In this document: positions 3-33,225 of the stretch, piece by piece | Position numbering within the stretch: position 1 is the first letter of the stretch | Layout of the letters: each line of letters begins with the position of its first letter | Assembly: GCF_026151205.1 (NCBI RefSeq) | Contig: NC_087082.1 | Coordinates: 2,694,001 to 2,758,000, forward strand | DNA from: Bolinopsis microptera | Taxonomy: Eukaryota > Ctenophora > Tentaculata > Lobata > Bolinopsidae | Length of the DNA stretch: 64,000 nucleotides | Reading direction: 5' to 3' | Notes under the pieces: model-generated | What the model was told of the DNA's origin: nothing | The model's input: only the letters and a program-made list of their open reading frames with translations | Database searches by the model: none | Made by a program: the position numbers and the translations under genes

Positions 3-3000
3 TTTTTGCTCTCTATAAAACCAATGAGTTGTGAAAAACCCCAAAAAGGGATCAAACCTTCTGCATATAAAGCAAATATGCTGTCTTTTTGTGCCAAAAG
101 AAGTTTTGATGAGTTAAAGTTATTTTTCACCCTAGCAAAAGATAAAGTCACTGAAACATCCACCAGAACTGAAGCGGTGAATTCAATCATGATGTGTGAT
201 GCCATTTGGTTTTATATCTTCAATGCTAAATGTGATGACGCAGTAATTTATGAAATGTTTGTGTCTGAAGTTTTGGATTTATTTTTCCTTCTAGCAAATT
301 ACATGGAGAGTTTTCCATCAAGGAGAAGAGAGATAATTGGACACATTGTTGAGAAAGACTTCATTGTGAACCTGAAGAATGGCCAAGAAAAGGTATCAAA
401 GGGACTCAGATTTGCCAAGCTTGCAGTTACTTTAGAACCAGCTGTCCTGAAGAATGTTATGCCCTTATTGAGCAGTTTGGTCAAGATTGGTGATCCTGAT
501 CTTGCTAGTGGGCTTTATGAGATGCTGTTGAAGGTTGGCAATGTTAGTGACCTTAGTAATTGGCATGATCTTACTCAGATTCCAACTATTGAAGAACTAT
601 TTGGAGACCCTCTTGAAAAAGTATCATATTTGAGACCTGTGTTATTGTCCTCCGGATATGAAAACAGTGATGATTACTTGAATGTATACTACAGACTGTT
701 AAGAGCAGAGTGCTTTTCTGCTATACAAAAAGGTATAGCAGATTTTAAAAGTGGTAAGCTTGATGCAAGAGACATGAACATCTATGATAAAGTGTCTGTG
801 AGAGACATTGATATGGAGTACTCTTCTGTCCTGATATCACTCCAGTTTTCTCTTGAAAAACCAGTACATAATTGGAAAAAGTCAAGGAAGCTAATGTTTG
901 GTAATCTTTTATGCATCACCATCAAGGGAGACTTCTCAGATCCTATTTGGCTTACAGTAGCAGACAGAGATGAAACTATACTTCAAAAATACAATGTGAT
1001 AGGAGCACAACTTATTTCATTTGATGGTTCTGATACTGATGCAGCCAATAAAATAAGAAACCTGATGTTGCATTCTGGTAAAATGATAATGGCAGAAAGT
1101 CCTACTTATTTCCAATCATTTAAGCATGTTTTGACAAGTCTTAAAAACTCTGAAATAAGTAAATTTTGTATTGTTGACGAGATAGTTCATGGCAGTTATT
1201 ACAAATCTTTAAATTTCCACTCTCTGATTAATCCGTACTTGAGCAATGTAGGTTACGAAGAGCTGGAAGAAAACCAAAAGAAGGCTTTTTTACATGCATT
1301 ACAGAGCACATTAGGGATAATACAAGGCCCTCCAGGAACTGGAAAAACACTTGTTGGTGCAAAACTTGCACAAATGTTCCTTTGTTTACGAGATGGTGGA
1401 AAATTAAATAATCTCTTAGAAGTTAATAGTCGTTATGCTGGCTCTTCTGTTGATTCTTCTATTGATTATTCTACTGATTCTTCTACTGATTCTTCTACTG
1501 AATATGATGAGCTTAAAAGATCAGAATTGTTAGAAGAGAACCCACCCATTTTGATACTGACATACAAAAATCATGCTCTGGATGAATTCTTGAAACACTG
1601 CACTGAATTCTGTAACAAAGAATATATTACCCGGATTGGAAGTCAATCAAAAGAAGACATACTTAAAGATTGCTTACTCCACAATAAGATGAAAAGCTGG
1701 AAAATGAGAAGAGTGCCAACAGGTTCTGTGATTTCAGAGATCAAGGATTTATTTTTTGAACTTTCTTCTTTATTGTCTGAGCTAGAAATAACGAAAGTCT
1801 TCACAATTGAAAGTTTTATTAGCCGTTTGAATCTCGAACAACTCAAAGATTTTATAGACAATGCTATAAAGACTCCCTGGGAATATCCCCCTCAATCAGT
1901 GAATGTGAATGCAAAAGCAACACAGGCAATGCTGTCATATTTTACCGATTGGAAGGAAGAAGATGACTTCAAAGAGATTATTTTGCAATTAGTTTCTCAA
2001 CCATTTTTATACTCCAATCAAACTCTGGACATGGAGGAAAGGACAGAAATAATTATTGCTCAAAAAGTTAAGGATGCTTACGAAAATCACTGGCTACCCA
2101 ATAAGCAACTGTTAAAATCTTTGACTCAACTCCAGCAAAGTGGTGCTGCATTTTTTAATACATGCCAGATCGATAGCAGCGAAGATGAGGACGACTTTGA
2201 TGACCTTGAAGATGATACTTTTGGGGAAGATGATCTTGACGAAGATTACATTAATGAGCAGTTAATTATGAGATTTTCTGGTTTTGATGAAGATGAAACT
2301 AGATATTTTAGATCTACTAAGGATATCAAGTCAGCCAAGATGACTAAATTAGAAGCACGAATTAGGAGCAAGAGAAATATGGCTCAAGATATAAACAACA
2401 CAAGCATATTTTGCTTATCAGACTTTCCACCAAGTTGTGCTGTAAGCCAAGCCATTCTTAAAAAGAATAATCTATGGACTCTTTCAGCCATTGACAAATA
2501 TAAATTTATGTATAGTTTTTTGCAGTCTGGCTGCAATGAGCTGATGGATAAGATGAATGATTTGTTAGAAGAGATCAATATATTGCAAAAACAAAAAGAA
2601 ATGATTGACCACAAAAATAAATTGCAAGTTCTGAAGACTCAAAAAATTGTTGGAGCAACAATCATTGGAGCTTCTATCCAATTATCAATGATTAAAAAGT
2701 TGGCACCGAAAGTTATCCTCGTAGAAGAAGCTGCAGAGGTTTTAGAGTCATGTTTAGTTGCTGTTTTGAGCAAAAGCGTCCAAAAGCTAGTTCTCATTGG
2801 TGACCATAAGCAATTGAAGCCAAAGGTTGATACATACCATCTTAGGAGGGAATATAACTTTCACATTTCTATGATGGAGAGGCTGATAAAAATAGGATAT
2901 CCGTACGAAAAGTTACTGAGACAGGGACGTATGAGACCAGAGTTCTCTTGTATGCTGAAAGACATTTACCCAGAATACCAGGATTTCCCAGGGCTAGAGG

Positions 3001-5522
3001 CAGAAAGAAAGATTATAACGTGCTTACCTCATTCCATGTTTTTCTGGTCGCATCAGTTTCCTGAAAACAAAGATCGTTCAGTTAAAAACTTGGGCGAAGC
3101 CAACATGGTTGTAGCACTGGCTTTATTCTTCGTTGCCAGTGGCGTGAAGGAGGCTGATTTGACCATACTTTGTGCTTACATGGGACAAGTTCAACTTGTA
3201 AGGAAGCTTTATCGTGAGATGACCCTTTTGGAGCCACCCCGAGATATAACAAAGCAAACCACGGAAAAACAACTCATCGACATACGAACAATTGATGAGT
3301 ATCAAGGTGATGAAAATAATTTTGTGATTGTTTCATTGACTAGATCGAACCTCCATGGGAAGATCGGGTTCCTCGAAGAAATCGAGCGGCGTTGTGTAGC
3401 ACAATCTAGAGCAAAGTGTGGATTGTATTTCGTAGGAAATGGTAAGATGTTCACAAAAAGCAAAACATGGAAACCAATCATGGATACTATGGATGGGCAG
3501 AACCTCATCAGTAATAGGCTTCCTGTTACATGTTATAGGCATCCTGATAAAATTTATAATGTTTATCAGAAAGACGATATAGCTAAGAAGGAAACTGTGG
3601 ATAATTCCCAGTTGATGTACTTTGTTCACAATAAAAACAACTGGTGTAAGGTTATCTGCAATTCCTCCTTTCCCTGTGAAATTGAAGCTCATCGTTGCAA
3701 GAAACTGTGCACTCCACGACATGATGATACAAAGTGTAAAACCCCGGTTAAATTCACCTTTCTAGTTTGTCAACACACAACTTCAAAGCTTTGTTATGTA
3801 AGTGAAGAAGATATGAAGTGTGAAACCAAGATGTTGGTCAAGTTACCTGATTGCGGACACGAAAGAGATGTTGAGTGTCATACTTGGTCCTTTAAAAAGA
3901 ATCTAATCATCTGTACTGAGATTTGTTCTAAGTCCTACGACTGTCCATTTCAGCATAAATGCTCGAAGGTTTGTGGAAGATATCATCAGCATTTTGAAGG
4001 GGATTGCCCCGAACAAATCGAGTTTAAATTTCCCAAATGCAACCACACTGCTCATATTAAAAAGGTGTGTGGCAAACCTGTGCCAGATATAAAATGCAAG
4101 TTCCAGCTCAAATACAAGAGCATCCAGTGTGGTCATGAACAGATCCGAAAATGCTCAGAAGAAGAGGAATGTAAACTTACATGCAACAAACTAAGACCTG
4201 ATTGTGGTCATCCATGTACAAACATATGCAGTAAACCTTGCCTTGAAGTAGACTGCAAAATTTGCACAGAGCAGTATCAAAAGTCTATTGATGCTGCCAA
4301 AAAACTTGCTGAGGAGCAGTTGAAAATATGCAAACTGAATGAAGCTGATCCAGACTTCTTTGAACTGTTGCCTCTTTCCTCTGATGCAATGGTAAGTTTA
4401 GCTGGTGTAAAAGAAAAATGTGATTTGTTCTTAAGTCTGTATTCTACTTCGAAAGTTAAGGACATAATTGGTGTGTGGAAAATGAAATGTCCTCACAACA
4501 CATCCTCCTTTTGGGAATATGCTTCTAAATCTAATGGTATAGTGAAAGAGGACTTGTACAAATTGACTTCAGGTTTTCTCGACACTACCACCATTCAAAG
4601 TAAGGAGGATATGTTTGCCCACCTGATTGTACAGTCGTCAATTAACTGTTTTGAGTTTGTGAAATATGCAGGGAGTAGAATGGCATCACTTCGGGGAAAC
4701 GAATATACTTTGGTTGTTACAGAAGTGTTGCTAGGCGATAGTGTAGATAATGAAAAGTTGACAAAAGATAAGGTGAAAAGATCTAGAGATGCAGTGACTC
4801 GATTCCTAAAAAAGGAGAAAAAAGATTCAGTGATAACAAAAAGCACAAATGCACCATCAATTTACTCAGTGTACGAGAACAGTCAGATACACTTGAAGTA
4901 CATTGTACATTTTGTAACAGAAAAACTGGTTGCAAACAAAGAACTGATTTTGCAGGATGCTTTGAAAAATCTACCAGAAGGTGAAACAGTAATGAGCCTA
5001 TCTGGCATTGACCTACGTGATGTAAGTAATCCATTGATAGAAATGGTCCAAAAAGCAATTTCATTGTATAGAGGGCATTATTCACTACGAGATTCCTATG
5101 CAAAATCAAGGCAACCTCTCAAAGAAATCAAAGAAGTTGGTTTAGTTGTAAATCACCAGGCCAATCAAGCATACGAGAAAAAGCTTAAAGAATTGAAAGA
5201 AAAGCGAAAAGGAGGACACAAACTCGTGGAAGTATTTGCATATCATGCCACTAAGCCTGAGAATATTGATAGCATCATCAGAGCCAATCTTGATCCTGGG
5301 AGAGCTGGAAGTGCACATGGAACAGCACACGGTAATGGCTGCTACTTTTCAGAACATCCCGAGTTTAGTTTCAATTATGGGCAAGCAACTATGCTTATCT
5401 TTAAACTCATTCTCATCGAAGGTCAGTATAAGAAAGTACAGCCAGATGGAAAGGGATTTTGTCAGCAACTTGTGTTAAATGATGCATCATTGTTCAAACC
5501 CCAGTTTGTATTGCGTTTTTAG
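3..5522 (+). CDS. ZNFX1-like helicase / NFX1 zinc finger / PARP fusion protein, copy 1 (5' partial)
   Basis: The coding frame is open from base 3 (1839 codons in the window), so the 5' end lies off the left edge. By alignment with copy 3 about 70 residues of this exon plus upstream exons are missing. Order of domains seen: N-terminal helical region (to about residue 420); SF1 helicase with Walker A GPPGTGKT (about residue 442), motif II VEEAAE (about 907), motif III IGDHKQLKP, motif V-like DEYQGDE and motif VI QSRAK; Cys/His-rich NFX1-type zinc fingers (about 1217-1423); a linker; and a C-terminal PARP fold (about 1741-1839) with YHATK, HGTAHGNGCYFSEHPEF and a final LVLND...FVL strand. Vertebrate ZNFX1 (known) has the helicase and NFX1 fingers but no PARP domain, so this is a fusion. 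At the place of the PARP1 catalytic Glu this copy has Gln (hand alignment). It probably acts in cytoplasmic RNA surveillance or antiviral defence (inference). The whole visible part is one exon. Confidence 0.93.
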   Translation, partial: FLLSIKPMSCEKPQKGIKPSAYKANMLSFCAKRSFDELKLFFTLAKDKVTETSTRTEAVNSIMMCDAIWFYIFNAKCDDAVIYEMFVSEVLDLFFLLANYMESFPSRRREIIGHIVEKDFIVNLKNGQEKVSKGLRFAKLAVTLEPAVLKNVMPLLSSLVKIGDPDLASGLYEMLLKVGNVSDLSNWHDLTQIPTIEELFGDPLEKVSYLRPVLLSSGYENSDDYLNVYYRLLRAECFSAIQKGIADFKSGKLDARDMNIYDKVSVRDIDMEYSSVLISLQFSLEKPVHNWKKSRKLMFGNLLCITIKGDFSDPIWLTVADRDETILQKYNVIGAQLISFDGSDTDAANKIRNLMLHSGKMIMAESPTYFQSFKHVLTSLKNSEISKFCIVDEIVHGSYYKSLNFHSLINPYLSNVGYEELEENQKKAFLHALQSTLGIIQGPPGTGKTLVGAKLAQMFLCLRDGGKLNNLLEVNSRYAGSSVDSSIDYSTDSSTDSSTEYDELKRSELLEENPPILILTYKNHALDEFLKHCTEFCNKEYITRIGSQSKEDILKDCLLHNKMKSWKMRRVPTGSVISEIKDLFFELSSLLSELEITKVFTIESFISRLNLEQLKDFIDNAIKTPWEYPPQSVNVNAKATQAMLSYFTDWKEEDDFKEIILQLVSQPFLYSNQTLDMEERTEIIIAQKVKDAYENHWLPNKQLLKSLTQLQQSGAAFFNTCQIDSSEDEDDFDDLEDDTFGEDDLDEDYINEQLIMRFSGFDEDETRYFRSTKDIKSAKMTKLEARIRSKRNMAQDINNTSIFCLSDFPPSCAVSQAILKKNNLWTLSAIDKYKFMYSFLQSGCNELMDKMNDLLEEINILQKQKEMIDHKNKLQVLKTQKIVGATIIGASIQLSMIKKLAPKVILVEEAAEVLESCLVAVLSKSVQKLVLIGDHKQLKPKVDTYHLRREYNFHISMMERLIKIGYPYEKLLRQGRMRPEFSCMLKDIYPEYQDFPGLEAERKIITCLPHSMFFWSHQFPENKDRSVKNLGEANMVVALALFFVASGVKEADLTILCAYMGQVQLVRKLYREMTLLEPPRDITKQTTEKQLIDIRTIDEYQGDENNFVIVSLTRSNLHGKIGFLEEIERRCVAQSRAKCGLYFVGNGKMFTKSKTWKPIMDTMDGQNLISNRLPVTCYRHPDKIYNVYQKDDIAKKETVDNSQLMYFVHNKNNWCKVICNSSFPCEIEAHRCKKLCTPRHDDTKCKTPVKFTFLVCQHTTSKLCYVSEEDMKCETKMLVKLPDCGHERDVECHTWSFKKNLIICTEICSKSYDCPFQHKCSKVCGRYHQHFEGDCPEQIEFKFPKCNHTAHIKKVCGKPVPDIKCKFQLKYKSIQCGHEQIRKCSEEEECKLTCNKLRPDCGHPCTNICSKPCLEVDCKICTEQYQKSIDAAKKLAEEQLKICKLNEADPDFFELLPLSSDAMVSLAGVKEKCDLFLSLYSTSKVKDIIGVWKMKCPHNTSSFWEYASKSNGIVKEDLYKLTSGFLDTTTIQSKEDMFAHLIVQSSINCFEFVKYAGSRMASLRGNEYTLVVTEVLLGDSVDNEKLTKDKVKRSRDAVTRFLKKEKKDSVITKSTNAPSIYSVYENSQIHLKYIVHFVTEKLVANKELILQDALKNLPEGETVMSLSGIDLRDVSNPLIEMVQKAISLYRGHYSLRDSYAKSRQPLKEIKEVGLVVNHQANQAYEKKLKELKEKRKGGHKLVEVFAYHATKPENIDSIIRANLDPGRAGSAHGTAHGNGCYFSEHPEFSFNYGQATMLIFKLILIEGQYKKVQPDGKGFCQQLVLNDASLFKPQFVLRF

Positions 5523-6266: not shown

Positions 6267-6268
<2 letters not shown>
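5523..6268. other. Intergenic, 3' flank of copy 1
   Basis: AT-rich sequence after the stop codon of copy 1. I see no convincing open frame and no clear consensus AATAAA directly downstream; weak ATTAAA-like hexamers occur. It ends at the poly-G terminus of a transposon. Confidence 0.6.
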
Positions 6269-6317
<49 letters not shown>

Positions 6318-11934: not shown

Positions 11935-14088
11935 GTCAGTATCATATGTCATTTTATCTTATCATTATACATAACCATAACACCTACAATTTTCTTGTCA
12001 CCCTACCTCGTGCACCCTCACTGGTGCACGAGTTTCTGGGCCACCATGTTTTGAGGCGTGATGTAATTTAGGCAAAAATTTCCTAGATACTACATCGTAG
12101 AGCTTGTAGGGCCTGTCGTGATATCATGGATCGCTTAGGTTCCACCAGGATCTGGTAGTCCTCATAATTCTGCGGCCTTTATGTATCGTCATCTCGTACA
12201 ACTCTTTAAGAATCTTAGGGATTTGGCATGTGAAAATTTGCAGCCTTCCAGACATTGATTGGGTTAACGAGGTGTCGTACGTCACCTCAAGATCGGGTGA
12301 CAGGGGGCTGACCAGGCCAGAACCCAATTGATTGGGTCTGAGGTCACGTGATTATGAGCCTGAGGTCACGTGACTATGACGTCACCAGACCTTGTTCTCC
12401 GTTTCCCGCTCATTGGACCAGGTGAGCTTGCATGCTTGTGAATGTGGGTGTAAGTACAGCTGTACTGTAGTTTATACCTAATTAACCCCTATAGAAACCG
12501 AAAATTTACAGATTCATCATAACAATATTACGACGCATAAATAAATTTACTGTCCGGAAATTACTTTAATATAGAATGGGAGTGAGTATTACAAACCTCG
12601 GGTCAGTTAACGAGTAATAAAAGTTTCCGAGGACCGTGAATCAGTAGAATAAGCATCAGTGCTTGACGACTGTTACTTAGAACCGTGATAGCCCAATTAC
12701 CGGACACTACGGAGAACACTACGACGGAGGTGGAATTTTCATAAAAGGGTGGACAGCACAGTCATGAGTCATGTGTCCTATACCCAGTTCAATGGCCAAA
12801 ACAGCTACTGAAGTTATAAGAACTGTACGATTCCCTAAATCCTGAAATTCTATAGTATAATTTGTCCAGTGGTAGATTTTACAGTGTAGAGGGTGTACAA
12901 GATGGGGCACCTGATGAGGACCGACCTGACCGCTCCCGATTATCCGATAAGGGAGTGCAGACTACGAAGACGACGAGTAATGATAATATTGCATGGGTTC
13001 ACGTACAATTAAGAAGGCAGATTTACATTTGCATTGGCCTTTAAGTTTACATCATTTGAGAACTTAATCCAAGATGTTACAGTGGTAATCAATGATCAAT
13101 CCTGCCGTGACATTTTCTCGTAATTATAGAATAGTTTTTGCTAAGATAAATGGGATGATTGGCTACATCTGTCCTTCAGTCTGAGATATTAGTTATATAA
13201 TGATCCGATGTGCCTACAGCCTGCAGCTGTACACTGTACAGGTACAATCGTTCAATACACACAGCATCACTATGCTCTCTTAGACAGTTTTGTCGGCCAT
13301 TTGCTCTATCTGCAAAGCTAAGAACTAAGTTGACAATAATCTATCTTCACTCTTAAATTTATTTATGTTCAAAACACTTGACAATAAATTTGCTCGCCGT
13401 TTCTGCACGAAAATACTACCGTAATCTGTACTTTTGCACAGCGTTTTTTGCACGAAAATGCTCATCCATACTTTGGCAGAGCATTTTTGCGCGAAAATGC
13501 TCATCCGTGTTTTGGCAGAGCGTTTTTGCTCGAACATGCTCATCCCTACTTTGGCAGAGCGTTTTTGGACGGATTAGCATTCTTAGTGCCCTGTTCTTTG
13601 CACGAAACATGCTAATGTCCAACTCTGGGGGAGGCCTTTTTAGGGTAATAGAGAATAGCACTTATAGCAATGAGTGCCAGTATATATCTACTGCAGTAAA
13701 CCCCTAAACCCTAAAGCTCTAAAGCTGCAGTAATTTGTCAGGTTTTGCGTTAAATCGGAATTTTTTTAAATTTATTGTTCACAATTTACATGTTTACCAC
13801 AATTCTGGGGAAGGAAATGGCTTTGGTAAATCGGGTTTTCGGTAAATTTAGGCGTGGTAAATCAGGATTTTACTGTATCTAGGATAAGTTGGACTAGGCT
13901 TGAGTTTCGTGCATTTATTTTTAAATTAAAGGTCATGGTTGCTATGATACAAACTCCGATTTTGATCAGTTGTTTTGCGTCTGAATCCTTGAAAGATTAA
14001 CCACAATTCTTGTTAGATTGTTAATATTTCGAACAGGTTTTGAAAAGACTCGATTTAAAAAAAAGTTTATTAATCATTTTTATTTCAG
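11935..14088 (+). other. Large intron of helicase copy 2 with dispersed repeats
   Basis: Non-coding between GTCAGT at 11935 and a TATTTCAG acceptor ending at 14088. It contains two CACGTGA-type sites near 12345-12370 with a TGACGTCA-like site, a minisatellite at about 13425-13580, and the sequence GTGCTTGACGACTGTTAC near 12658, which recurs near 20529. I see no credible exon. Confidence 0.55.
13425..13580. repeat. Minisatellite, about 39-40 bp unit, about four copies
   Basis: The unit contains TTTGGCAGAGCGTTTTTG followed by CGAAAATGCTCATCC and recurs with a spacing of about 39-40 bp. Open frames on both strands here come from the repeat period and are not genes. Confidence 0.75.
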
Positions 14089-17000
14089 CAGTTTACTTGT
14101 CCTGTGAGACAAAGTAAAATTCAAGATGGATGGAGGCTAGGCACAGTGAAAGGTCAATCGCAAGATGCAGTATACATCAAACCAGTGATGGAACTTCCAC
14201 AAGGGTTAATAGCTGATAAGGATGTGCATGTTTGGAAAGATCAGATTTCTGGAATTAGTAATATTTTTCCTGTAATGAAAGGTGACAAGATAGAGTTTTT
14301 GCTCTCCGACAAACCGCAAAAGAAAGGCAACAAGCTATCAGCATATAGAGCAAACATAGTGTCCTTTTGTGGACGAAGAAGTCTCATTGAGTTAAGCCAA
14401 TTTTTCGTCCTTGCAAAAAATAATGTTGGCGAAACTTCTACTAGAACTGAAACCATGAATTCAATTATGACCTGTGATGCTCTGTGGTTTTACATTTTCA
14501 ATGCAAAATGTCGTGATAATGAAGAATATCAGGCATTCGTATCAAAAGTTTTGGATTTCGCCTTCTTTTTGATCGAGCACATGGACAGTTTTCCTTCCAG
14601 AAAAAAGGAAATATTTAATCTTATTTTAGACAGAGATTTCATTGGTCAGCTTAAAGACGAACAAGATAAGCATTCAAACAAACTAAGATTGGCCATGTTT
14701 GCAGTAAATACAGACATAGGCTTGTTCAAGAAAGTGATGCCGATTCTAAGCAGTGTGGTCCAAGAAAGCGAATCAGATGTTGCCAATGCACTTTACAAGA
14801 TGCTTATGAAATTTGGAAACATCTGTGATCTTAACAACTGGCACGACCTTCCTCAGATTCCCACAATCGAAGAATTGTTTGGAGACCCTTTGGAAAGAGT
14901 AAAAGTTTTGAAACCCGTCTTGTTAACGTCTGGGTATCAAAATGCTGATGATTACTTGACTGTATACTACAGATTACTACGAACGGAATGTTTTTCTGCT
15001 ATACAGGAGGAATAACTGCCTATAAGCAAGAAATTTGAATCGTAGGGATATGAGCATATTCAAGAATGTTTCTGTGGCACATCTTGAGCTGGAGCATGCG
15101 AAAATCTTAATATTTCTTAAATTTTCCTTGGACCAACGAGTTGCAAATTGGAAGAAGTCGAAAAAGCTCATGTCTGGTAACCTTTTGTGTGTTACTGTTG
15201 AGGGCGATTTTTCAGATCCTATATGGCTCACCGTTGCTGATCGAGATGAGGTTCTTCTAGAAAAGCATAGCGTTATTGGAGTAGAATTGATATCATTCCA
15301 CAGCTCAGATGCTGATACTGCTGATAATGTTAAGAAGTTGCTGTTTAATTCTGGCAAAATGATCATGGCAGAAAGCCCTACATATTTTCAATCTTTTAAA
15401 CATGTGTTGAATAGTCTTCAGTACTCAGAAATTGGCAACTTTCCTCTTGCCGATGAGATTATTCATGGTAGTTTCAAACAGTATGAAGGTTGTCGTAATT
15501 TGATTTCACCATACTTGAAAGATGTGGAATATGAAAAATTGGAAGAAAACCAACGAAATGCTTTTGTCCATGCTTTAGCTAGTACTTTGGGTATCATTCA
15601 AGGACCTCCTGGTACAGGAAAGACCTTAGTTGGTGCAAAACTTGCCAAAATATTACTTTGTTTGCAGAAAGATAACAAACTCAACAACTTACTTAACCAG
15701 GGACAGACTCCTTTGAACTATGCTGATGAAAATCATGAGGGAAATAGTGCCTCAAAAAATGAGGATAACCCACGGGCATACTCATACTTACGTACAAAAA
15801 TCATGCACTTGATGAGTTCCTACTGCACTGCATAAAATTTTGCGATAAAGGAGATGTTACTAGAATAGGAGGGTCAATCAAAAGAAGAAGATCTGAAAGA
15901 CTGCTTGCTGCATAACAAGATGAAAAATTCGGGAGGAATTTCAAGTAGACAAATCATGAATGAAATTGACGTCTTATTCGCCAAACTTTCAAATCTGTAT
16001 TCTAAACTTGGAGACTTGCAAATGTTTACTTTTGAAAGTTTTGTCAGAAGTATGACAGATCAACAGTTTACCGATTTTGTGGACAAAGCAATTAAGAAAA
16101 CATGGAAGTTTCCCCCCAAGTCATTGAAAGTCGATACCGTACTCGTCAAGAAGCTACATCGTTTCTTCACTATATTGAAAGAAGACCCTAACTGGAAACA
16201 GCAATTTTTACAAATAATGTACCGCTCATGTAGCCAACACCAGGAAAGTGAAGCCGACAAAATGATAGGTATGATATCTCTTAAGGTCCGGGATGCTTAT
16301 GAAAATCACTGGTTGCCAAACAAACACAACTTAAGTCAATTGCAACAAAAAGGAAGTTTCCTTTTAAATGCACATATAAAAGATAATAATATTAATGATG
16401 ATGTTATTGTTGATGAAATAGAGGATGGTGTGCTTGGAGAGGATGACGAATTGGATAGAGATTACATAAACGAGCAACATGCTACTAGGGCGTCAGCTTT
16501 TGATGAAGATTTTAAAAGTAAGTTTAAACCCAAAGACTTAAAATCGGAACGATTGGTAAAACTCGAAGCATCTATATCAAAGACAAATGCTAAAAATGCT
16601 AAAAATAAGAAGAACAAAAACGTCTTTTGCTTATCAGATTTCCCATCACATTGTGCTTTAAGCAAAAGTATTTCAACGAAAGATATCTTGTGGAGTCTCT
16701 CAGAAGTCGAGAAGTATACTTTCATATACAGTTCTTTGCATTCGGGAAATGACAATTTGATAGATGATATGAATGAACTGTTTGAACAAATCAACATGAA
16801 GCAGAAGCAGAAAGAGATGATTACTCTTACTAATAAGGTAGAAGTTTTAAGAACCCAAAAAATCGTTGGTGCAACTATAGTAGGAGCATCTTGTCAGTTG
16901 TCATTGATTAACAAATTGGCACCAAAAGTTGTCCTCGTAGAAGAAGCTGCAGAAGTTTTAGAGTCATGTTTGGTTGCTGTTTTGAGCAAGAGTGTCCAAA

Positions 17001-17854: not shown

Positions 17855-19620
17855 ATCTGCAATTCCTCCTTTCCCTGTGGAATTGAAGCTCATCGCTGCA
17901 AGAAACTCTGCACTCCACGACATGATGATACAAAGTGTAAAACTAAAGTCGATTTCAAATTTTTAGATTGTCATCATACTACTCAAAAGGAGTGTTACAT
18001 TGAGGAAAAAGATATGAAGTGCAAAACCAAGAGACTCGTAGAGCTGCCTAATTGCAGACACCAAAAAGTGGTAGAATGTCATACTTGGATTTTCAAAGAG
18101 AATGAAATCATGTGTACTGAAACCTGCTCAAAGTCATATGACTGTAAATATCAGCATAAATGTGAAAAAATGTGCGTAAGAGCTCATGAGCATTATGCAG
18201 AGCATTGTCCAGAAAAGGTAGAGTTTGTGATTCGAGAATGTGGCCACAAAGCAAATATTAAGAAGGTGTGTGGTAAACCCGAACCAGCGATAACATGTAA
18301 ATCTATCTGCAATTACTCCTTTCGCTGTGGAATTGAAGCTCATCGTTGCAAGAAACTGTGCACTCCACGACATATACATGACGATGCAAATTGTAAAACC
18401 AAAGTCGATTTCAAATGTGCAGCTTTTCGTCATACTACTCAAAAGGAATGTTACATTGAGGAAAAAGATATGAAGTGCAAAACCAAGATACTGGTAACGT
18501 TTTCTAAGACGTGCAAACACCAAAAAGAGGTAGAATGTCATACTTTTAATTTCAAAAAGAAAGAAATCATGTGTACTGAAACCTGCTCAAAGTCATATGA
18601 CTGTAAATATCAACATAAATGTAAGAAAATATGCCGAAGAGCTCATGAGCATAATGCAGAGCATTGTCCAGAAAAGGTAGAGTTTGTGATTCGAGAATGT
18701 GGCCACAAAGCACATATTAAGAAGGTGTGTGGTGAACCTGAACCAGTGATGAAATGTAAATTGATCTGCAATTCCTCTTTTCCCTGTGGAATTGAAGCTC
18801 ATCGTTGCAAGAAACTCTGCACTCCACGACATGACGATACAAAGTGTAAAACCAAAGTCGATTTCAAATGTGTAGCTTTTCATCATACTACTCAAAAGGA
18901 ATGTTACATTGAGGAAAAAGATATGAAGTGCAAAACCAAGATATGGGTAAGGTTTCCTGAGTGTAAACACATAAAAGAGGTAGAATGCTGTGTTTTGACT
19001 TTTCAACGGGAAACTATCATTTGTATGGAGACCTGCTCAGAGTTATATAAATGTCCAAATAAGCACAAGTGTGAGAAGATTTGTGGAAGCGCTCATGAGC
19101 ATAATGCAGAGCATTGTCCAGAAAAGGTAGAGTTTGTGATTCAAGAATGTGGCCACAAAGCACATATTAAGAAGGTGTGTGGTAAACCTGAACCAGCGAT
19201 AACATGTAAATCTATCTGCAATTCCTCCTTTTCCTGTGGAACTGAAGCTCATCGTTGCAAGAAACTGTGCACTCCACGACATATACATGAAGATACAAAT
19301 TGTAAAACCAAAGTCGATTTCAAATGTTTAGCTTGTCTTCGTACTACTCAAAAGGAATGTTACATATTGGACAAAGATATGAAGTGCAAAACCAAGAGAC
19401 AGGTAAAGTTTTCTACGTGTAAACACACAAAACTGGTAGAATGCTATGTTTGGACTTTAGAACAGGAAACTATGTTTTGTATGGAGACCTGCTCAGAGTT
19501 ATATAAATGTCCAAATAGACACACGTGTGGAAAGATTTGTGGAAGAGCTCATGAGCATTTTGCGGAAGATTGTCCGACACAAGTGGAATTCGAATTTCCT
19601 AAATGCACAGCTCATATTAG
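17855..19620 (+). repeat. Fourfold tandem duplication of an NFX1 zinc-finger module (about 450 bp) in helicase copy 2
   Basis: The sequence encoding ICN(S/Y)SF.CG.EAHRCKKLCTPRH starts at about 17855, 18305, 18764 and 19214, a spacing of about 450-459 bp or 150-153 residues. Each module continues through TTQKECYI, CKTK, ETCS and HIKKVCG-like Cys/His blocks. Copies 1 and 3 have one such module. The copies are very alike at the DNA level, so the expansion is recent and within one exon. It may have arisen by unequal recombination. Confidence 0.9.
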
Positions 19621-19960
19621 GAAAGTATGTGGCCAACCGAAAGTAGAATGTGAAACGAACTTCGAGTACGAGAGTACCAAATGTGGACATCTTCAAAACC
19701 GGAATTGCTCAGAGGTAGAGAAATGTATTCATGTATGCAACAAGGAAAGGCCTGACTGTGGTCACCCGTGTGCAAACCTATGTAGTAAACCATGCCTTGA
19801 AATAGACTGCAGGATTTGTTCAGAGAAGTCTAAAGAATCCCTTTTTTCTGTTCTGCTAAAAAGGTTGCGGAGGAAAAGTTGAAAATATGTAGATTTAGCA
19901 AAGCTGAACCTGACTTTTTCAAGCTTCTGCATATGTCTACCAGCACAATGGTTGACTTAA

Positions 19961-22234
19961 CGATTTTATTTACGATTTTAACAGTGTTGAGACAATTATC
20001 AGTGTAAAAGTTTGAGAAAGAAAGCATGCTGTATTCTCTGCTCACTTATTTCATTGAGTATCAACGATAAGGCTGTTGTGTTTCTTATTATGTTAACAAC
20101 ATTATATATTTATAATTAACTCGATTCACTGGTTGTTTTCAGTTACTGAATAGTGATATTCACGACTTGCTATTTTTTTTTTTTGAAATGTAATAGCGAT
20201 GATAATATTGCGATAAGCAATTTTTTTGTATCCGTTTAGTTCTAGATATAACTAATTTTTGAACAAGTTATAAATTTAAGAATTTGGTCACATTTTTGGA
20301 CCTAACTGATTTTTTTCCCTACTCTTGCCGAAGGCAAAAAGATCGTAGGGAATAAGTAATCAGGTTTGGATATATGAGGTGGCCCGACGGTCCTACGTTG
20401 ACGACAAAAGTCTGCTCCTTCGCAATATAGACCACTCTCCTATAATTATGTGTATAAAAGGAGTATATTTTGCGCGCGCGACGCCTGTTATGTGTTAATT
20501 AATTACAGGCATAGCAACCAGTTTTTGGTGCTTGACGACTGTTACACAGGTTTCCATCGGGTTACAATTCACTCTTATTCATTAATATAGCATATTAGTC
20601 ATCATAGCGGATCAATCATCAATGTAAGTGTTATTTTGGTGAAACAAGCTTGATAAATTACAGAGTGATAAAATTCAGCAAGTCGAAACAAATTAAATTA
20701 TGATATCAGCTGATAAACTCGTTGCTGATTACTTAATATATATTACTTATAACAGTTGATCGACACTTCATGGTAAAATTTAAAAAGCGAAAACATAGTT
20801 GACAAAAGATGTTACTTTACATTTAGATTCAAGGAGCAACTAAGATCAAGATTGCGGTATGCTTTTAAAGAATCCTATATAAAATCAAAGGCTCGATAGT
20901 CGATGGTGCTGTAGATGTAAGCATCAAAAGCATTAGTTTATGTTATGTTATTCCTCAGGAATGAATAGTACAAACCCTTTTAAGATTCCTTTATTGCATA
21001 ATTGATTTTTATTTTGCCTGAGGGGCTTTCCATAAATTATTTTTTTAAATAATTGGTCCTTTTATTGATGTTTCATATTTCACGGCAGTTTCCTTTTCAG
21101 AGTTTGAGTTTATATTTAGAAACTAACCATACTATCTTTTAGATTTATGTCACTTATGATGGCTCCGGCTGAAAGTACTATGACTCATTTTATCTAGAAG
21201 ATTGTAGTTTCATTGCTTCTGAAGTAGCTATCAGTTCGCCGGTCAATGTTGGGTATAATACTCTTGTTAGTTTATGTTATATACAAATAATAACTAAGAT
21301 GAGACAGAATAGTTGATTACAGTCAATAAAGTTGGCATACGATGCAATAATATGACGTGACATGATACTCATCGTTAACACGAAACAAAACCGTGCAAAA
21401 ATGAAATGATCTACAACCAAACCACATACAGATCGACGGCGACACTTCAGATGCGCGCAGAATTTTACAAGTTCTGCACGCCTAATATAATATAAACGAT
21501 TATCGCGTGCGCCAAACACCACTGTGGGATACAATAAGGGGTCGTTCACATATTACGTAATCATTTTTTGGAACAGTTTTACCCCCCCCCCCCCCCCCCC
21601 CTCCGTAATCAGTTTTACACAAAGCTATTGTGTCGAAATTACACTAGCGTAATCATTCGGAAACCCCCCCCCCCCTCAGCTGATTACGTAATATGTGAAC
21701 GACCCCTAAAGTAGAACAATTACATTGTAGGCAGTAGGGAAATTTGATCGTGCGTGGTGTTACCGCGGCGGAATTCTTGTTGTAATTTTATTCACATAGA
21801 TCTTCAGTGTTTTTACAGTATAATCATGACAAATTCACAAATCGTTAATATTCTGACAAAATTTTGTTTTAATGTAAAATCTATTGTATATCTATACTGG
21901 ATAATTGTGTCATTTAATTAAGAATAATTTACTTTTTATATCATATAATTATAGACAGACTATGAATTATTCTTTTACTGTTAAATTCTTATTCTGATCC
22001 ATGCATTAGTGTTTTACTGTTTTATTGATTTAATAGAACTCTGCAACATAATCAAAAATACAATCAGTAAACCTTATCTCTGATTTAAATATTAAACATG
22101 TTATTGATCGCTTTCAATTTCATTAATAACGAAGCTCTAATTATGTGTATCTTAGTGCATGGTTATAATGGCATCTAGCTAAAGTGGATGGAGTCTGACC
22201 TTGACTTATTTATTGAAGACTTCTGTCCACCCAG
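19961..22234. other. Intergenic or 5' region of the MIF4G gene
   Basis: AT-rich sequence after homology to copy 1 ends. It holds the dispersed GTGCTTGACGACTGTTAC repeat near 20529 and a TAA-flanked MITE at 21538-21706. Just after the MITE, a stretch with GATCGTGCGTGGTGTTACC near 21750 recurs inverted near 45420. No gene is seen. The sequence where the missing PARP domain of copy 2 should lie is unrelated. Confidence 0.5.
21538..21706. mobile_element. MITE, TIR GGGGTCGTTCACATATTACG, TSD TAA (PIF/Harbinger-like)
   Basis: 169 bp with terminal inverted repeats GGGGTCGTTCACATATTACG / CGTAATATGTGAACGACCCC, flanked by TAA on both sides (21535-21537 and 21707-21709). The 3-bp TAA duplication is typical of PIF/Harbinger (known). 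Two long poly-C tracts lie inside. A longer relative lies at 38531-39013, and a remnant of the end (TTACGTAATATGTGAACAA) near 57902. Confidence 0.82.
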
Positions 22235-24674: not shown

Positions 24675-24968
24675 TTTCGCATGAGTCAGAAGTCAGGCTG
24701 GTATACCCGAAATATTCAACCTATTGTATACTATTCATGTACGACAAACTTTGAAAGAGGTGATTTTAGAATATTCTTGTTTGAATTTAAGTTGGTATAA
24801 ATTAGAGGTTCGAGATTACAGTTCACTTCAATTTGTCCACTATCAATGAGAGGAAGCTTCAATTCCAGCCGTCCAGTTTGGTGCATTATGCTTCAAGTTA
24901 TGAGTTCTAAATTGTGATCTTGGTTAGCGAATGTGCTCCGTCCTAGAGCGTTATTGGGTTTTTTAACT

Positions 24969-24974
24969 AATAAA
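24969..24974 (+). terminator. Candidate polyadenylation signal AATAAA of the MIF4G gene
   Basis: Consensus AATAAA about 295 bp after the stop codon of the MIF4G gene, the first one on this strand that I noticed. Confidence 0.4.
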
Positions 24975-26238: not shown

Positions 26239-29200
26239 ATGGATCCGGACTCTGACCAAATCGAGGACTTTCGTCCGCCAAGAGTACCTCGGAATCACGG
26301 AAAAAATACAGTCAGATCTTCTTTTGATGAGGTGATTTTTAGAATTCTGTCGTCAATTCTGTTTATGGAATAATTTATATTTATATAAATACTATCAAAT
26401 TTTATACTCGAAGCTATGGCAGATTCTGAGTGTTGCCATGCAACACAACCAGTTAAATTCTTATTTTGATATTAAAACACGGTATCAAAGTTTCCCACAT
26501 CTCGTACCAGGATTGTTATAAACAGCTCAATTTGTTTACACAGCAAAGGAAAGACAATGACTCAAGACGTGGAACAACAGGTGGTACAAGAAGTGGTATA
26601 AGAGGTGCTACGAGTGCAGTTTCCAGGGAGACAAATGTGCCCTCGTCTAGGTTAATTGATTAGTATGGTATTGATATAGTTTAACACAGGACTAATAAGA
26701 AGGTTCATCGAATGTGCGTCTGGCCAATTCAAATTCACTTATTTTGGCCAGAAAATAATATTATATCATTCGTCCTTTATGTACAATCCCTCCTAACGGC
26801 TGATATTTCATTTTCAGTAGACTGTCGAGTGGTAAGCAGAAGCATTCGCCTGGACCTAGTAGCACATCATACGCACAGTCAAAAATGAAGGTGGAGAAGC
26901 TCTCATCTTCACTTTCAGGGCTTCGTTTAAGAGACAGAATTCCCATGGTATGTATTTCGAAACTCCTTATTTTAAAGCTGAAGGATTAGAAAATATCTAT
27001 GAAGTATCGCCGTAATTGCCGCTCAGAAGGATTGCTTAATGTATAAGACATATTAGAATATATTTACAGTTACACGGGTAACCCCTCCCCCACTTCCCCC
27101 TTCAAAATTCATTCCCCAGGAGTGTTCTCCATCACGATCTTCAACAGAGATTGACACATCAGAACATAGTCTGAACTCATATTCTGGAGATAACACAGCG
27201 GATATTGTGAGTAATTTAACAGTTATAATGTCTCTTCAAATTTCATAGAAGATTCCTCAACATTTCAACTCCAATACCGAATGGTTAAGTATAATTTTAT
27301 CGTCCTTCTGCAGGTGAATCGGCCAATAAAGTTAGGATCCGGTCGCGGCTCGACTTTCTATTCGAAATGCTTATCTAATATAATGTTTTGCAATTTCAGA
27401 TATTTAGCTGCGATCCGCCTCCATATCTTCGAAGCAAAGTGAAACAAGGCTGGACACACGGAACTTTAAATGGGGCACGTCTTGAGATCTCTCTCTATGT
27501 GAAGCCCATCTTCCCCCTTCCCAAAATATATAACGCCAGAAAAGATGTGTATATTAAAAACGTTATTGTCCCAGGGTTCAACCACTTGTTAGAGCCCCTG
27601 GAGGGTGACAAGATAGAATTTAAACTGCATCCTCCCAAGTTCCAAAAACCCATCGAGAACAAGCCATCCGCCAAAAGTGCCTGTATTCTCTCTTACTGTG
27701 CTCCAAGATCGTTTATCGAATTACAATCATACTTTAGTGACACCTTAGAGAAAATAGAGAATTCCTCAACCAAGACAGAATTTATCACCTCCCTGATGTC
27801 ATCTGAGGCTATTTGGTTTTACTTCTTCAATGTAACGTGTGATGACGATCATTACTTTGAGAGGTATATTCGAAGTTTGCTGAACTTCATTTTCTCTTTA
27901 TCTGACCACATGGAAAGTTTTCCATCACGGCGAAAGGAGATTTTTGGCCTTATGCTAGAGAAAAACTTTATTGGTTCTGTAAGGGATAAGACCGTTCGGC
28001 AATCATATGAGTACATGTTTATTGAGTTGGCTGTGACCATGGAACCATTGTTTCTAAAAGATGTCATACCCTGGATTAGCAGAATTATGGAGGGTCCTCA
28101 AACTCCCTTTACGGGTATTTTATACAAGATCCTAATGAAACTTGCCGATATTGTTGACCTCAGTAATTGGAAAGAGCTTACCCAGATTCCATCCATCAAA
28201 GAGATTTTAGGTGATCCACTTGAACGAGTAAGTTATCTGAGGCCCATCCTACTTAAATCAGGATACATAGATGGAGATGATTACCTCAACGTGTATTATA
28301 GGCTCTTGAGGGCAGAATGCTTTTCTGCTGTTCAGAAAGGGATCGTTGATTTCAGAAGAGGAAAATTGGATCCTCGTGATATGGATATCTATGACAAAGT
28401 ATCTGTTGTAGACATTGACATTGATCATACGACTATTTTGTTGTCACTCAAATTCACTTCTAAAAGACCTGTGAATGATTGGAGCAAGTCTAAAAAGTTG
28501 ATGTTTGGAAATCTCCTCTGTCTGTCAATCAAAGGTGATTTCTCTGATCCTATCTGGCTGACGGTATCTGAAAGGGATGGAGGGATCCTCCAAAAGTTTA
28601 ATGTCATCGGAACAGAACTAATTTCATTTCACTGCTCGGATATAAATAGCGCTGAGATAATTCGAAAAATGCTCTTACATTCCGGTACAATGGTGATGGC
28701 AGAGAGCCCTACGTACTTCAAATCATTCCAGCATGTGCTTTCTAGTCTGAAGGTTTGTCAGATGGAAGACTTTAACCTTTACAATGAAATAGTACACGGA
28801 GATTACACTGGTCAAAAGCTAACGGAAGTGTTCACGAATTCATTATGTGATTCAAGTGACTTAGCTGGAATTCTCAAAATAATCAATTATCATGAAATGG
28901 AAGAGCATCAGCGGAATGCATTTTGGCATGCTACGAAAAGTCGATTGGGGATTATACAAGGCCCTCCAGGAACAGGAAAGACATATGTCGGAGTCAAGCT
29001 CGTGCATTTATTTCTTGAATTGCAGAAAAATCGTATACCCCATAAAGTTGTTCATCAGAATCGATCTAAAACGGAGTCAGGCGACACTAATCCCATTGAA
29101 TCTGACTCAAAACGTTCACTAACTGATAGTGACGACGAATCTGAGTTAAGCGAGAATGATTCTACGTCAAAACGTTTACTAACTGATAGTGACGACGAAT

Positions 29201-32200
29201 CTGACTTAAGCGAGAATGATTCTACATCAAAGAGTCCACCAAATAATTCTAAGTTACAAGAATTACATAATCCGCCTATCCTTGTGTTAACTTACAAAAA
29301 CCATGCACTTGATGAATTTTTGAAGCACTGTATTACATTTTGCGATGATAAAAATGACATTACTAGACTGGGAAGTCAATCTAAAGAGGAATCGTTGAAA
29401 GATTGCCAGCTTCACGTGCAAATGAAAAATGTTGACAGATTTTCTAAAATATCTACAAGAGGAATCATAGAAGAGACTGAGTCGTTGTTCGGAAAGCTTT
29501 CTATTTTATTGAGAAAACTTCAACAACAAAAAGTGTTCAACTTCACGACATTTATAACTTGCTTGTCAGCTAGCCAACTGTCGATGTTTGCTAGCAATGC
29601 TCTCAAAGTACCTTGGAGATGGAGGCCACAATGGCGTAATATACCAAATAATAACACATTGTTACGAAATTTCGCCGGATGGGAAAGAAATGATAATGAA
29701 GATCTAAAGATTCGGTTGCTCTCTCACGTCAGTGCTCTGCAAACTAGAACACCAGATCATAAACAGAAACCGTTCAATATGATGCAAAGAGTCATAAGTT
29801 GCAAGTTGCTCGATGCTTTCAGTTTTATCTGGTTACCAGATAAAGAAAATGTTAAAAAACTCACTAGACTTCAAAAAATGGGTGCTGCTTTCTTTAATGT
29901 AACATCTAAAACTGACGAATATGGACAAGATTGTTCTGCTGACGTTGCAGATATTGACATCATTGATGATCTTGACGAAGATTACGTGAATGAACAGCTA
30001 AGTCTTAGACGCTCAGCTTTTGACGAGGATGGCTACAAGCAAAATCGATCTCAAGAAAACAAATCTCAAAGACTTAACCGGCTTTCTAGAAAAATGAAAG
30101 AAAGAATGAGTTTTGTTGACAAAAAAGACTACACCTCGTCTGATTTTCCTGAAAGTTGCCAAAAAGATGAAGGCCTATTGGCCAAAGCTGATGTCTGGAA
30201 TTTATCTGAGATAGAAAAGTATGCCTTCATCTATAGTACACTGCATCTTAGCTTCGATGACATCTCAGAGGAAATGAATTTTATCCTCGAACAGATTGAT
30301 ATTCAGCAGAGAAAAAAACAATCGACTGACGAGCAGAATAAACTCATGTTTTTGAAAAATCAAAAAATTGTTGGAGCAACGATAGTTGGAGCCTCTGTCC
30401 ATCTCTCCTTAATACAGAAACTTGCTCCTAAGATTGTGATAGTGGAAGAAGCCGCCGAAGTGCTTGAACCTTGTTTAGTTGCTGTTCTTACGAAAAGTGT
30501 TGAAAAACTTATATTGATCGGAGACCACAAACAGTTAAAACCTCAAGTCGATACATACCATCTACGCAAAGAATACAATTTCCATATTTCAATGATGGAA
30601 CGTCTAGTTGGTTTAGGATTTCCTTATAAAAAGCTGGTAAGGCAAGGAAGAATGCGACCAGAATTTTCTTGTATGCTGAAAGACATTTATCCTGACTACG
30701 ATGACTTCGAAGGACTGTCAGATAAAAACGAAGTTATCGAATGTTTATCGTGCAGCATGTTTTTTTGGTCTCACGATTATCCTGAAGTAAAAGACAGGTC
30801 TGCTCGAAATCCAGGGGAAGCAAATATGGTGCTTGCTTTGGCTTTATTCTTTATTGCAAGTGGTATCCCTGAAGATGGTATAACTATACTCTGTGCATAT
30901 CTAGGACAAGTTCAGCTGGTCAGGAAAATGTATCGTGATTTGAATCCGATATCGACTCCAAGTGGAACCTCAGACAAAAAGCAAATTAATATCAGGACTA
31001 TTGATGAGTACCAAGGTGACGAAAATAGGTTTGTGATAATTTCCCTTACCAGATCGAATAACGAGCAGAACATCGGATTTCTTAAAGAAGTGGAAAGAAG
31101 ATGCGTGGCTCAGTCAAGAGCCAGATGCGGTATGTACTTCATTGGCAATGTGGGTATGTTCAAACGGAACAAAACCTGGGAATTCATCACAAACAAGATG
31201 GAAGCTTTGAAATTGATAGATAGCAAACTACCGATTTGCTGTTTCAGACATCCAAGCTATACGCGAAACGTCGTTCAAAGTCAAGATATTATGGTACAGA
31301 GAAACATTACTGACAACAACCAACTGATGTATTATGTCCAGACAAAAGATAATTGGTGCAAAGCAGTTTGTGATGTATTGTTCGAATGTTTAATAGAAGA
31401 CCATCGCTGTAAGAAGCTGTGTACACCTAGACATGATGACAGCAAATGTTTGACAGAAGTGAGCTTCACGTTTACTACATGTAAGCACGAAACGATGAAA
31501 AAGTGCCATATCAAAGATGAAGATATGAAATGCTCGGTTAAACTTACTAAAAAACTTGACTGTGGTCACAATAAAAGCGCATCTTGTCATCAGTGGTTGT
31601 ATGAAAAAGATGATATCAAATGCTACGAGACGTGTTCAGAATCCTACCAATGCATTTCTAAACATGCGTGTAATGAGATTTGTCATAGGGATCACAGCCA
31701 CTTCTCAGATAAATGCACAGCACCAGTGGAGTTCAAGTATCCTGTATGCAATCATGTTGTCCTTAACTACCAAACAGAATGTAATGACCCGAAGCCTCCT
31801 AAAGATGACCCAAAATGTAAATTTCGTCTCAAATATGAAAGCGAAAACTGTGGTCATAAACAGAGTCGCCTCTGTTCAGAATTTGAAAAATGCACTAGAC
31901 AGTGTGACAGAAATCGTCCTGACTGTGGCCATCGCTGTGCGAAAAAATGTTTCGAACCATGCATTGGAGGAAATAAAAATTGTAAATTGTGTGAGCTAGA
32001 ACACAAGAAAATCTTAGTTGCCGCTAAGGCAGCTGCTAAGATGCAATTACAGATATGCATAGAGGAAGCTTCAGACCCAGATCTCTTTTCTTTGACAAAT
32101 ATTACTGATAACACAGATGAGTTTTCAAGTGTAACAGAAAAATGTCAAGTGTTTTTCAGTTTGTATTCAAAATCGAGGGTAAAAAATATTGTGAGAGTTT

Positions 32201-33225
32201 GGAAAGTGAAATGTCCCTCCAACAATGTCAACTTCTGGGAATTTGCCAGTTATGCATTTGGTCCCCTTAAAGAGGAACTGTACAATCTTAAGCAAGGATA
32301 CTTGGACTGCTCATCTATGTTGAATAGTGGAGACCTCTTTAAACAATTTCAACATCCTAATCCAGGATATGATCCAGGATATGAGTTTACAAAGTATGCA
32401 TCCAGAAGTTTCACGTCTGATCGTAAAGAAAATAACAACCAATTTACGGTATTTATCTCAGATATCATGCTTGGAGATCGGTTAAACAAAGCAGATATAA
32501 TTAAAAACGGAGCTAAAAAGAATGGGTCCACTGCTGCACAACTGAAAGACCGCAAGAAGAACTCTGTTATTGAGACTAAGCCACATGGACCAGCATCGTA
32601 TTATGTTTACAATAGTGACCAAATTTTACCAACATACATTGTGCACTTGAGCTGTAAGAAGAAGATTGCCGGCAAAGGCCCATTAAAGGATTTAGCAGAT
32701 GGGGAACACAAATACGATTTATCATCCTTCAATCTTAGGGATCACAGTAATCCTATGTGTGATGAAATCCAAAGAGCCACTTCCCTTTACAAGGGAGACC
32801 GTTCAAAACGACCACCATACACGCAGGCCAATATGCCACCCATCAAATCTATTGGGGTTGTTGTTAATCGTAAATGCGAAAGAGAGTATGAGCAGAAGAA
32901 GGAAGAATTTAAAGACTCTAAACAAACGATTGTCGAAGTTTTTGCCTATCATGCCACAAAGCCTGAAAATGTTGCTAGTATCATCAAAAACAACCTTGAT
33001 CCTGGTAGAACACCCGTTCATGGAGCTGCATATGGTAAAGGTTGCTACTTTTCCGAACATCCCGAGTTTAGCTATGAGTATGGAAAAGAAACCATGTTTA
33101 TTTTCAAACTCCTCCTTATTGAAAATCAGTACAAGACGGTTGAACCCAACGAAAAGGGCTTCTGTCGGGAACTTGTACTGAACGATACATCACTGTTTAA
33201 ACCTCAGTATGTTTTGTACTTTTAG
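26239..33225 (+). CDS. ZNFX1-like helicase / NFX1 zinc finger / PARP fusion protein, copy 3 (complete)
   Basis: Five exons: 26239-26331, 26544-26650, 26818-26947, 27120-27206 and 27400-33225, giving about 2080 residues. All junctions are GT-AG and in phase. The start MDPDSDQIEDFRPPR is chosen because it resembles the acidic and Arg/Pro-rich start of copy 2. The first four exons encode a disordered Ser/Arg-rich leader (139 residues). In the large exon, counted from its start: Walker A GPPGTGKT at about 522, VEEAAE at about 1013, IGDHKQLKP, DEYQGDE, QSRARCG; NFX1-type fingers at about 1319-1530; PARP domain at about 1843-1941 with YHATK, HGAAYGKGCYFSEHPEF and RELVLND. An acidic tandem repeat sits between Walker A and the next helicase motif (29106-29229). 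The PARP His-Tyr-Glu positions look complete here, unlike copy 1. Likely an RNA helicase with ADP-ribosyltransferase activity in RNA surveillance or defence (inference). Confidence 0.93.
29106..29229 (+). repeat. In-frame tandem repeat (about 60 bp, two copies) encoding an acidic Ser/Asp/Glu segment
   Basis: SKR(S/L)LTDSDDESELSEND-like sequence is repeated twice in the helicase domain of copy 3, just after Walker A. Copy 1 has an unrelated Ser/Thr/Asp repeat (STDSSTDSSTEY) at the same place (about 1443-1503), and copy 2 another low-complexity stretch. The insertion site is conserved but its content is not. Confidence 0.85.

What the first reader, a model, noticed from the sequence alone, without database searches (positions are those of the whole stretch)
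3..33225. Tandem array of ZNFX1-type helicases fused to a C-terminal PARP domain
Copies 1 and 3 read continuously in one exon from SF1 helicase through NFX1 fingers into a PARP fold with the His, CYF and final beta-strand blocks. Vertebrate and nematode ZNFX1 (known) lack PARP. One polypeptide that could bind and unwind RNA and ADP-ribosylate targets would be a notable RNA-defence architecture, and it stands here in three tandem versions.
Basis: partly seen in the sequence, partly recalled or inferred. Interest (0 to 1): 0.85.

Follow-up and report, generated by a model that had tools for sequence, protein, structure and literature searches.

The report
RNA helicase fused to ADP-ribosylation domains
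In an unnamed animal-like genome the only detected ZNFX1-type antiviral RNA helicase genes end (where intact) in ADP-ribosyltransferase (PARP) domains instead of the RZ zinc finger known from human ZNFX1, which suggests that the same RNA sensor was wired to a different chemical output.

Summary
Mostly confirmed. Copies 1 (3-5522, 5' end just outside the window) and 3 (27379-33225) are each one open frame of 1922 and 1948 codons, from a ZNFX1-specific domain and SF1 helicase through a Cys-rich block into PARP; PF00644 exceeds its cut-off in both, and ZNFX1 is by far the best solved relative. Two corrections. Copy 2 is not a third version: it is frame-broken, carries four tandem Cys-rich units and stops before PARP. 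And the tail holds two ART domains: a degenerate ZAP/PARP12-like one, then a compact PARP12-like one. The terminal ART is the best conserved part between copies (72% identity, dN 0.15, dS 1.81). His and Tyr of the active site are kept; the third site is Glu in copy 3 and Gln in copy 1 and at four other loci of the genome. No profile names the fingers as NFX1-type. No other ZNFX1 gene was detected; RZ fingers sit elsewhere in the genome. Ten searches of open-access papers showed no report of this architecture; eukaryote proteomes could not be searched. Activity, antiviral role and transcript are untested.

The parts
3..5522 (+). Copy 1: giant exon, ZNFX1 helicase to ART2 and stop; its 5' part (open frame from C11:2693754) lies outside the window
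768..1100 (+). Copy 1 ZNFX1 domain PF25396
   Evidence: 53.6 bits
1263..3443 (+). Copy 1 SF1 helicase core (AAA_11, AAA_12); motifs GPPGTGKT, VEEAAEVLE, GDHKQLKP, QGRMRPEF, DEYQGDEN intact
3645..4283 (+). Copy 1 Cys/His-rich block at the position of the ZNFX1 fingers
   Evidence: no Pfam match
4404..4928 (+). Copy 1 degenerate ART1 (ZAP/PARP12-like, no His block recognisable)
   Evidence: (16.6 bits, below cut-off)
4944..5519 (+). Copy 1 terminal ART2: H1748, Y1781, third site Q1822 (codon 5466-5468)
14074..20004 (+). Copy 2: frame-broken ZNFX1 relic, no ART; segments 14074-15015, 15026-15835, about 15772-15888, 15869-19882, 19834-20004
17846..19852 (+). Copy 2: four tandem Cys-rich units, the first three 450-459 bp each
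20309..21792 (+). Dispersed repeat just beyond the truncated end of copy 2
   Evidence: 122 matches, the window itself and several pieces per copy included; 40 of 2800 candidates scored
26239..26331 (+). Copy 3 putative first coding exon (MDPDSDQIEDFRPP...), conserved upstream of copy 1 at L001:4515
   Evidence: GT donor by eye, no cDNA
26617..26985 (+). Two further upstream blocks conserved with copy 1 (26617-26673, 26849-26985), probable small exons
   Evidence: blastn
27379..33225 (+). Copy 3: giant exon (acceptor by eye before 27400), 1948-codon open frame
28375..28707 (+). Copy 3 ZNFX1 domain PF25396
   Evidence: 51.1 bits
28900..31149 (+). Copy 3 SF1 helicase core, motifs intact
31357..32010 (+). 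Copy 3 Cys/His-rich block
   Evidence: no Pfam match
32128..32664 (+). Copy 3 degenerate ART1
   Evidence: 22.9 bits, below cut-off 26.7
32671..33222 (+). Copy 3 terminal ART2: H1858 (32950-32952), Y1890 (33046-33048), E1931 (33169-33171)

Best explanation
The locus encodes ZNFX1 proteins whose C-terminal effector is an ADP-ribosyltransferase pair. SHOWN: one constrained open frame joins the ZNFX1 domain, SF1 helicase, Cys-rich block, a degenerate ART1 and a compact PARP12-like ART2, in two gene copies. INFERRED: helicase and Cys-rich block bind and move on RNA (viral or aberrant), as reported for mammalian ZNFX1; ART1, with no recognisable His block, is a pseudoenzyme that scaffolds or reads ADP-ribose, as in ZAP; ART2 of copy 3 (His-Tyr-Glu) mono-ADP-ribosylates the protein itself, nearby RNP proteins or RNA ends once RNA is engaged, marking them for silencing or decay. 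Copy 1 and the relatives (His-Tyr-Gln) are weaker transferases or binding-only forms. The ART thus stands where human ZNFX1 carries the RZ finger.
For: Domains in order over Pfam cut-offs in both copies, PARP also on the isolated C-termini. Profile of five ART2 sequences: 47 of 47 PDB sequences at E<=0.01 are PARPs, tankyrases or ZAP, best PARP12, 51.4 bits, E 1.3e-12. ART1 profile: 8 of 10 hits at E<=1 are PARPs, best ZAP, whole-sequence E 3.4e-4, domain E 0.0036. Copy 1-copy 3: ART2 72% identity, dN 0.15, dS 1.81, whole frame 52%; codon position 2 beats position 3 in 15 of 15 windows from residue 1301 to 1912 of copy 3. Tail register with two canonical PARPs of the genome is gapless by eye: NEFIVYD and PEYVVYR against RELVLND. 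Contig C2 has the same Cys-rich+ART1+ART2 order in one 724-codon frame. Mammalian ZNFX1 as dsRNA sensor, and ZAP's PARP domain as needed for full antiviral action: passages of PMC8787094.
Against: No transcript, protein or activity seen. H-A-T replaces the usual H-G-T/S (recalled) in 5 of 6 ART2 sequences; the domain lacks a stretch between the Tyr block and the last strands that PARP12 has (recalled); the third site is Gln in 5 of 6 (copy 1, C2, C3, C9, C4). ART1 is under the Pfam cut-off, only 2 of 4 members match PARP at E<=1, and linker plus ART1 are the least conserved stretch measured (39%). AlphaFold models were poor (pLDDT 37.8 and 58.9), fold searches inconclusive. Profiles do not recognise the fingers. 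An antiviral role rests on the family, not on data here.
Confidence: 0.6

Rival explanations
1. ART2 is a non-catalytic ADP-ribose or NAD+ binding module (pseudo-PARP like ZAP), so the protein is an RNA sensor that reads rather than writes ADP-ribose.
For: Gln at the third site in 5 of 6 ART2 sequences and a shortened domain; ART1 lacks the His block and matches ZAP best.
Against: His, Tyr and the S-x-x-Y nicotinamide residues (roles recalled from PARP1) are kept in copies 1 and 3 (C2 has Thr for Ser), Glu is present in copy 3, and ART2 is the most constrained region.
Confidence: 0.3
2. Two neighbouring genes: a ZNFX1 gene and a PARP gene happen to share an open frame, but mature transcripts separate them.
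For: No cDNA here; the C9 and C4 loci carry ART2 without fingers or helicase in the frames seen.
Against: No stop, coding constraint continuous across the junction in two copies about 50% diverged; C2 and C3 keep ART1 with ART2, C2 also the Cys-rich block, in one frame; copy 2 retains the start of the linker.
Confidence: 0.05
3. Ordinary lineage-wide ZNFX1 variant that public protein databases already contain under automatic names, so only the writing-up is new.
For: Multi-copy, few-exon invertebrate ZNFX1 genes are known (Blasi 2022: title seen in a reference list; abstract recalled; paper not held); every ZNFX1 gene found in this genome is of this kind or derived from it.
Against: Nothing in the listings of ten full-text searches or the passages read points to the fusion (passages). 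Weak evidence: most subscription papers are not held.
Confidence: 0.4

Closest known systems
Human ZNFX1 (1918 aa; PDB 9q9z)
   Same: ZNFX1 domain, SF1 helicase with EEAA motif, Cys-rich region after the helicase; best solved relative, 290 and 275 bits
   Different: Human protein ends in a coiled coil and an RZ finger (passages of PMC11959080); here ART1+ART2, and the 3 RZ hits found in the genome lie on C5, C2 and C1
PARP12 / ZAP (PARP13)
   Same: ART2 is closest to PARP12, ART1 to ZAP and PARP12; RNA-binding zinc region joined to ART in antiviral proteins
   Different: Those use CCCH fingers and WWE, no helicase, one ART each (partly recalled; clade passages)
Fish Gig2 family
   Same: Interferon-stimulated proteins with a weak PARP-like part; some have two tandem units (passages of PMC3617106)
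   Different: No helicase mentioned in the passages; reported as not found in invertebrates; C-terminal domain unique
Other ART2 loci of this genome (C2, C3, C9, C4)
   Same: Same compact ART2; C2, C3 and C9 are 51-62% identical to copies 1 and 3; C4 seen in two frames
   Different: No helicase in the frames seen; C9 carries a LEM domain (59.3 bits)

Membership tests
ZNFX1 | ZNFX1 domain PF25396 over cut-off | tested here: met
   53.6 and 51.1 bits, cut-off 27
ZNFX1 | SF1 (UPF1-like) helicase core with intact motifs | tested here: met
   best PDB hit ZNFX1 290 bits, next UPF1 97 bits (copy 1)
ZNFX1 | NFX1-type zinc fingers | tested here: inconclusive
   Cys/His-rich block in place but no Pfam or PDB profile match
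ZNFX1 | C-terminal RZ finger (human form) | tested here: not met
   PF20173 rings in 3 places, on C5, C2 and C1, none here; so this is a ZNFX1-type helicase with another C-terminus, not the human architecture
ZNFX1 | N-terminal ARM fold | not tested
   Region present (P0001 about 1-250) but no fold test made
PARP / ARTD (ART2) | PF00644 over cut-off | tested here: met
   5 of 5 ART2 sequences match PF00644 at E<=0.01; isolated C-termini of both copies over cut-off
PARP / ARTD (ART2) | His and Tyr of the H-Y-E triad | tested here: met
   5 of 5; also C4 by eye
PARP / ARTD (ART2) | Third residue Glu (or Ile/Leu etc. in mono-transferases; recalled) | tested here: inconclusive
   Glu in copy 3; Gln in copy 1, C2, C3, C9 and C4; gapless register by eye, not reached by the HMMER alignments
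PARP / ARTD (ART2) | ART fold | tested here: inconclusive
   Model pLDDT 58.9; Foldseek first eight rows are PARP14/PARP10 but E 0.21-0.72; VIA Z at most 3.9, top row not a PARP
PARP / ARTD (ART1) | PF00644 over cut-off | tested here: not met
   20.9 and 22.9 bits in copy 3, 16.6 in copy 1, cut-off 26.7; profile hits ZAP at E 3.4e-4
PARP / ARTD | NAD+-dependent transferase activity | not testable with these tools
   needs an enzyme assay

The most novel reading that the evidence does not exclude
Effector swap: in this lineage the ancient ZNFX1 RNA sensor writes ADP-ribose (through a pseudo-ART/ART pair) where human ZNFX1 carries an RZ finger, a ubiquitin-transfer domain in RNF213, and the ART module has been spread to other carriers (Cys-rich only, LEM) as a family of nucleic-acid-guided transferases with an unusual Gln variant of the active site.
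Probability: 0.35. Interest if true: 0.8.

Novelty: new variant of a known kind. Interest (0 to 1): 0.62.

Why it matters
ZNFX1 and the ZAP/PARP12 group are both interferon-linked RNA-defence factors in vertebrates. A natural single-chain fusion would tie RNA sensing directly to ADP-ribosylation and offers a way to ask what ZNFX1's C-terminal effector does, by comparing RZ-ending and ART-ending forms.

Tried and rejected
Structure: AlphaFold of the 404-residue tail (2 sequences) gave pLDDT 37.8, of the 168-residue ART2 58.9; Foldseek had no match at E<=0.001 and VIA-align none at Z 5 or more. Not used as support.

Relatives elsewhere: scans of viral contigs and genome contigs with the ART2 alignment found none; no eukaryote collection was available, so spread among animals is unknown. 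Organism: no COX1 and no GFP family match (where the tool says nothing rang anywhere) in the assembly; not identified.

Profile comparison of ART2 with ART1 aligned only an end shared because I had cut one member too long; discarded. Rfam: nothing over gathering score in the window. NCBIfam: helicase and unrelated models, each under its cut-off. Literature: PMC8787094, the one paper with 'ZNFX1' and 'PARP domain', speaks of the two in separate proteins (passages).

Rejected: chance open frame (length, profiles, constraint); third PARP copy; zinc fingers as proven NFX1 type.

Full report
What was checked. The window is C11:2694001-2758000 of an unnamed 264.65 Mb eukaryote assembly, most likely an invertebrate animal by its genes (inference). 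Copies 1 and 3 are single frames that end with a stop after PARP. Copy 1 continues upstream to an open frame of 1922 codons. Small upstream exons, including a first exon with the start MD-DSD-IED-RPP, are conserved between copies 1 and 3 (boundaries by eye).

Domains. Pfam gives ZNFX1, AAA_11, AAA_12 and PARP over cut-off in both, and the C-termini alone still pass for PARP. Phmmer's best PDB match is human ZNFX1 for both, far ahead of UPF1 in the search with copy 1. The Cys/His-rich block follows the helicase as in ZNFX1, but neither Pfam nor a profile of seven such blocks against the PDB (0 matches at E<=1) names it.

Two ARTs. Between the Cys-rich block and the terminal PARP lies a domain with a sub-threshold PARP match to the C-terminal half of the model in copies 1 and 3; at E<=1, 2 of 4 such domains match PARP. 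A profile of the four finds ZAP, PARP12 and PARP4 as 8 of 10 hits at E<=1, the best over nearly the whole ZAP ART (residues 32-170 of 173; whole-sequence E 3.4e-4, domain E 0.0036). No His block is recognisable in it (by eye), and it is poorly conserved (39% with the linker). The terminal domain's profile finds only PARP-family chains, 47 of 47 at E<=0.01, PARP12 first. The HMMER alignments stop before the last strands, so the third active-site residue was placed by eye in a gapless register with two canonical PARPs of the same genome: Glu in copy 3, Gln in copy 1, C2, C3 and C9 and C4. The stretch between the Tyr block and the last strands is shorter than in PARP12 (PARP12 sequence recalled).

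Constraint. Copies 1 and 3 share 52% of residues; the terminal ART 72%, with dN 0.15 and dS 1.81; in every other region dS is saturated. From residue 1301 of copy 3 to 1912, codon position 2 is better conserved than position 3 in 15 of 15 windows and position 1 in 14 of 15, one tie. This argues that fingers, linker and both ARTs are translated as one protein; it does not prove the transcript.

Copy 2. It is closer to copy 1 (59-61%) than to copy 3 (43-46%) in its two main segments, has several frame changes, a fourfold Cys-rich array, a remnant of the linker at 19834-20004 and nothing of the ARTs. As copies 1 and 3 both have ARTs, loss in copy 2 is the simplest reading; an assembly fault is not excluded for the single frame changes. 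A dispersed repeat follows at about 20309-21792.

Genome context. PF25396 rings in three places, all in this cluster; searches with both proteins find no other ZNFX1-like helicase, only short or weak helicase matches. PF00644 rings in 18 places, among them both copies, C2, C3 and C9. The same ART2 also occurs at C4. C2 carries Cys-rich+ART1+ART2, C3 ART1+ART2, C9 LEM+ART2. RZ fingers occur at three other places. Absence in G000 is not proof, as the tool warns.

Literature. Ten full-text searches listed no paper that by title or abstract describes ZNFX1 joined to PARP; most listed papers were not opened. Passages seen: PMC9334734 (three ZNFX1 and 17 PARP genes in Aplysia; the PARP list is in a supplement I did not see, so overlap is not excluded), PMC2964712 and PMC4245714 (PARP evolution; words NFX1 and helicase absent from the main text), PMC9503650, PMC11959080 (human ZNFX1 domains), PMC3617106 (Gig2), PMC8195618 (Aplysia co-expression of ZNFX1 orthologues and PARP12 as separate transcripts), PMC8787094 (ZNFX1 as dsRNA sensor, ZAP's PARP domain), PMC12687431 (RZ finger as ubiquitin-transfer domain of RNF213). 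Blasi et al. 2022 on metazoan ZNFX1 is not held; its abstract, as recalled, reports multi-copy, few-exon genes in invertebrates.

Verdict. A real, constrained domain architecture for which I found no description; function inferred. The number of intact PARP-bearing copies in the window is two, not three.

Noticed in passing
L021-L025 (C18, C6, C1, C5, C13): A dispersed element, 97.8-99.8% identical over 1.5-1.7 kb in five fetched copies, carries a broken fragment of the C9-type terminal ART: probably recent gene-fragment capture by a mobile element.
   Followed up: partly
L004:373-1206 (C9, minus strand): LEM domain directly joined to the same compact ART2 in a 278-codon frame.
   Followed up: partly
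window 1443-1501 and 29107-29231: In-frame tandem repeats (12 bp and 60 bp) encode Ser/Asp-rich inserts at about the same place after helicase motif I in copies 1 and 3.
   Followed up: no
window 17854-19558: 450-456 bp Cys-rich unit repeated about 3.8 times in copy 2, 86% matches.
   Followed up: partly
window 41009-42485: About 1.5 kb of TCC-rich degenerate tandem repeat with strong GC skew.
   Followed up: no
window 58849-59319 (minus) and 53468-54391 (plus): GIY-YIG-like frame (20.5 bits, under cut-off 22.6) and an open frame without a Pfam family over cut-off, both perhaps retroelement parts.
   Followed up: no
window 6269-6316: Run of 48 G.
   Followed up: no
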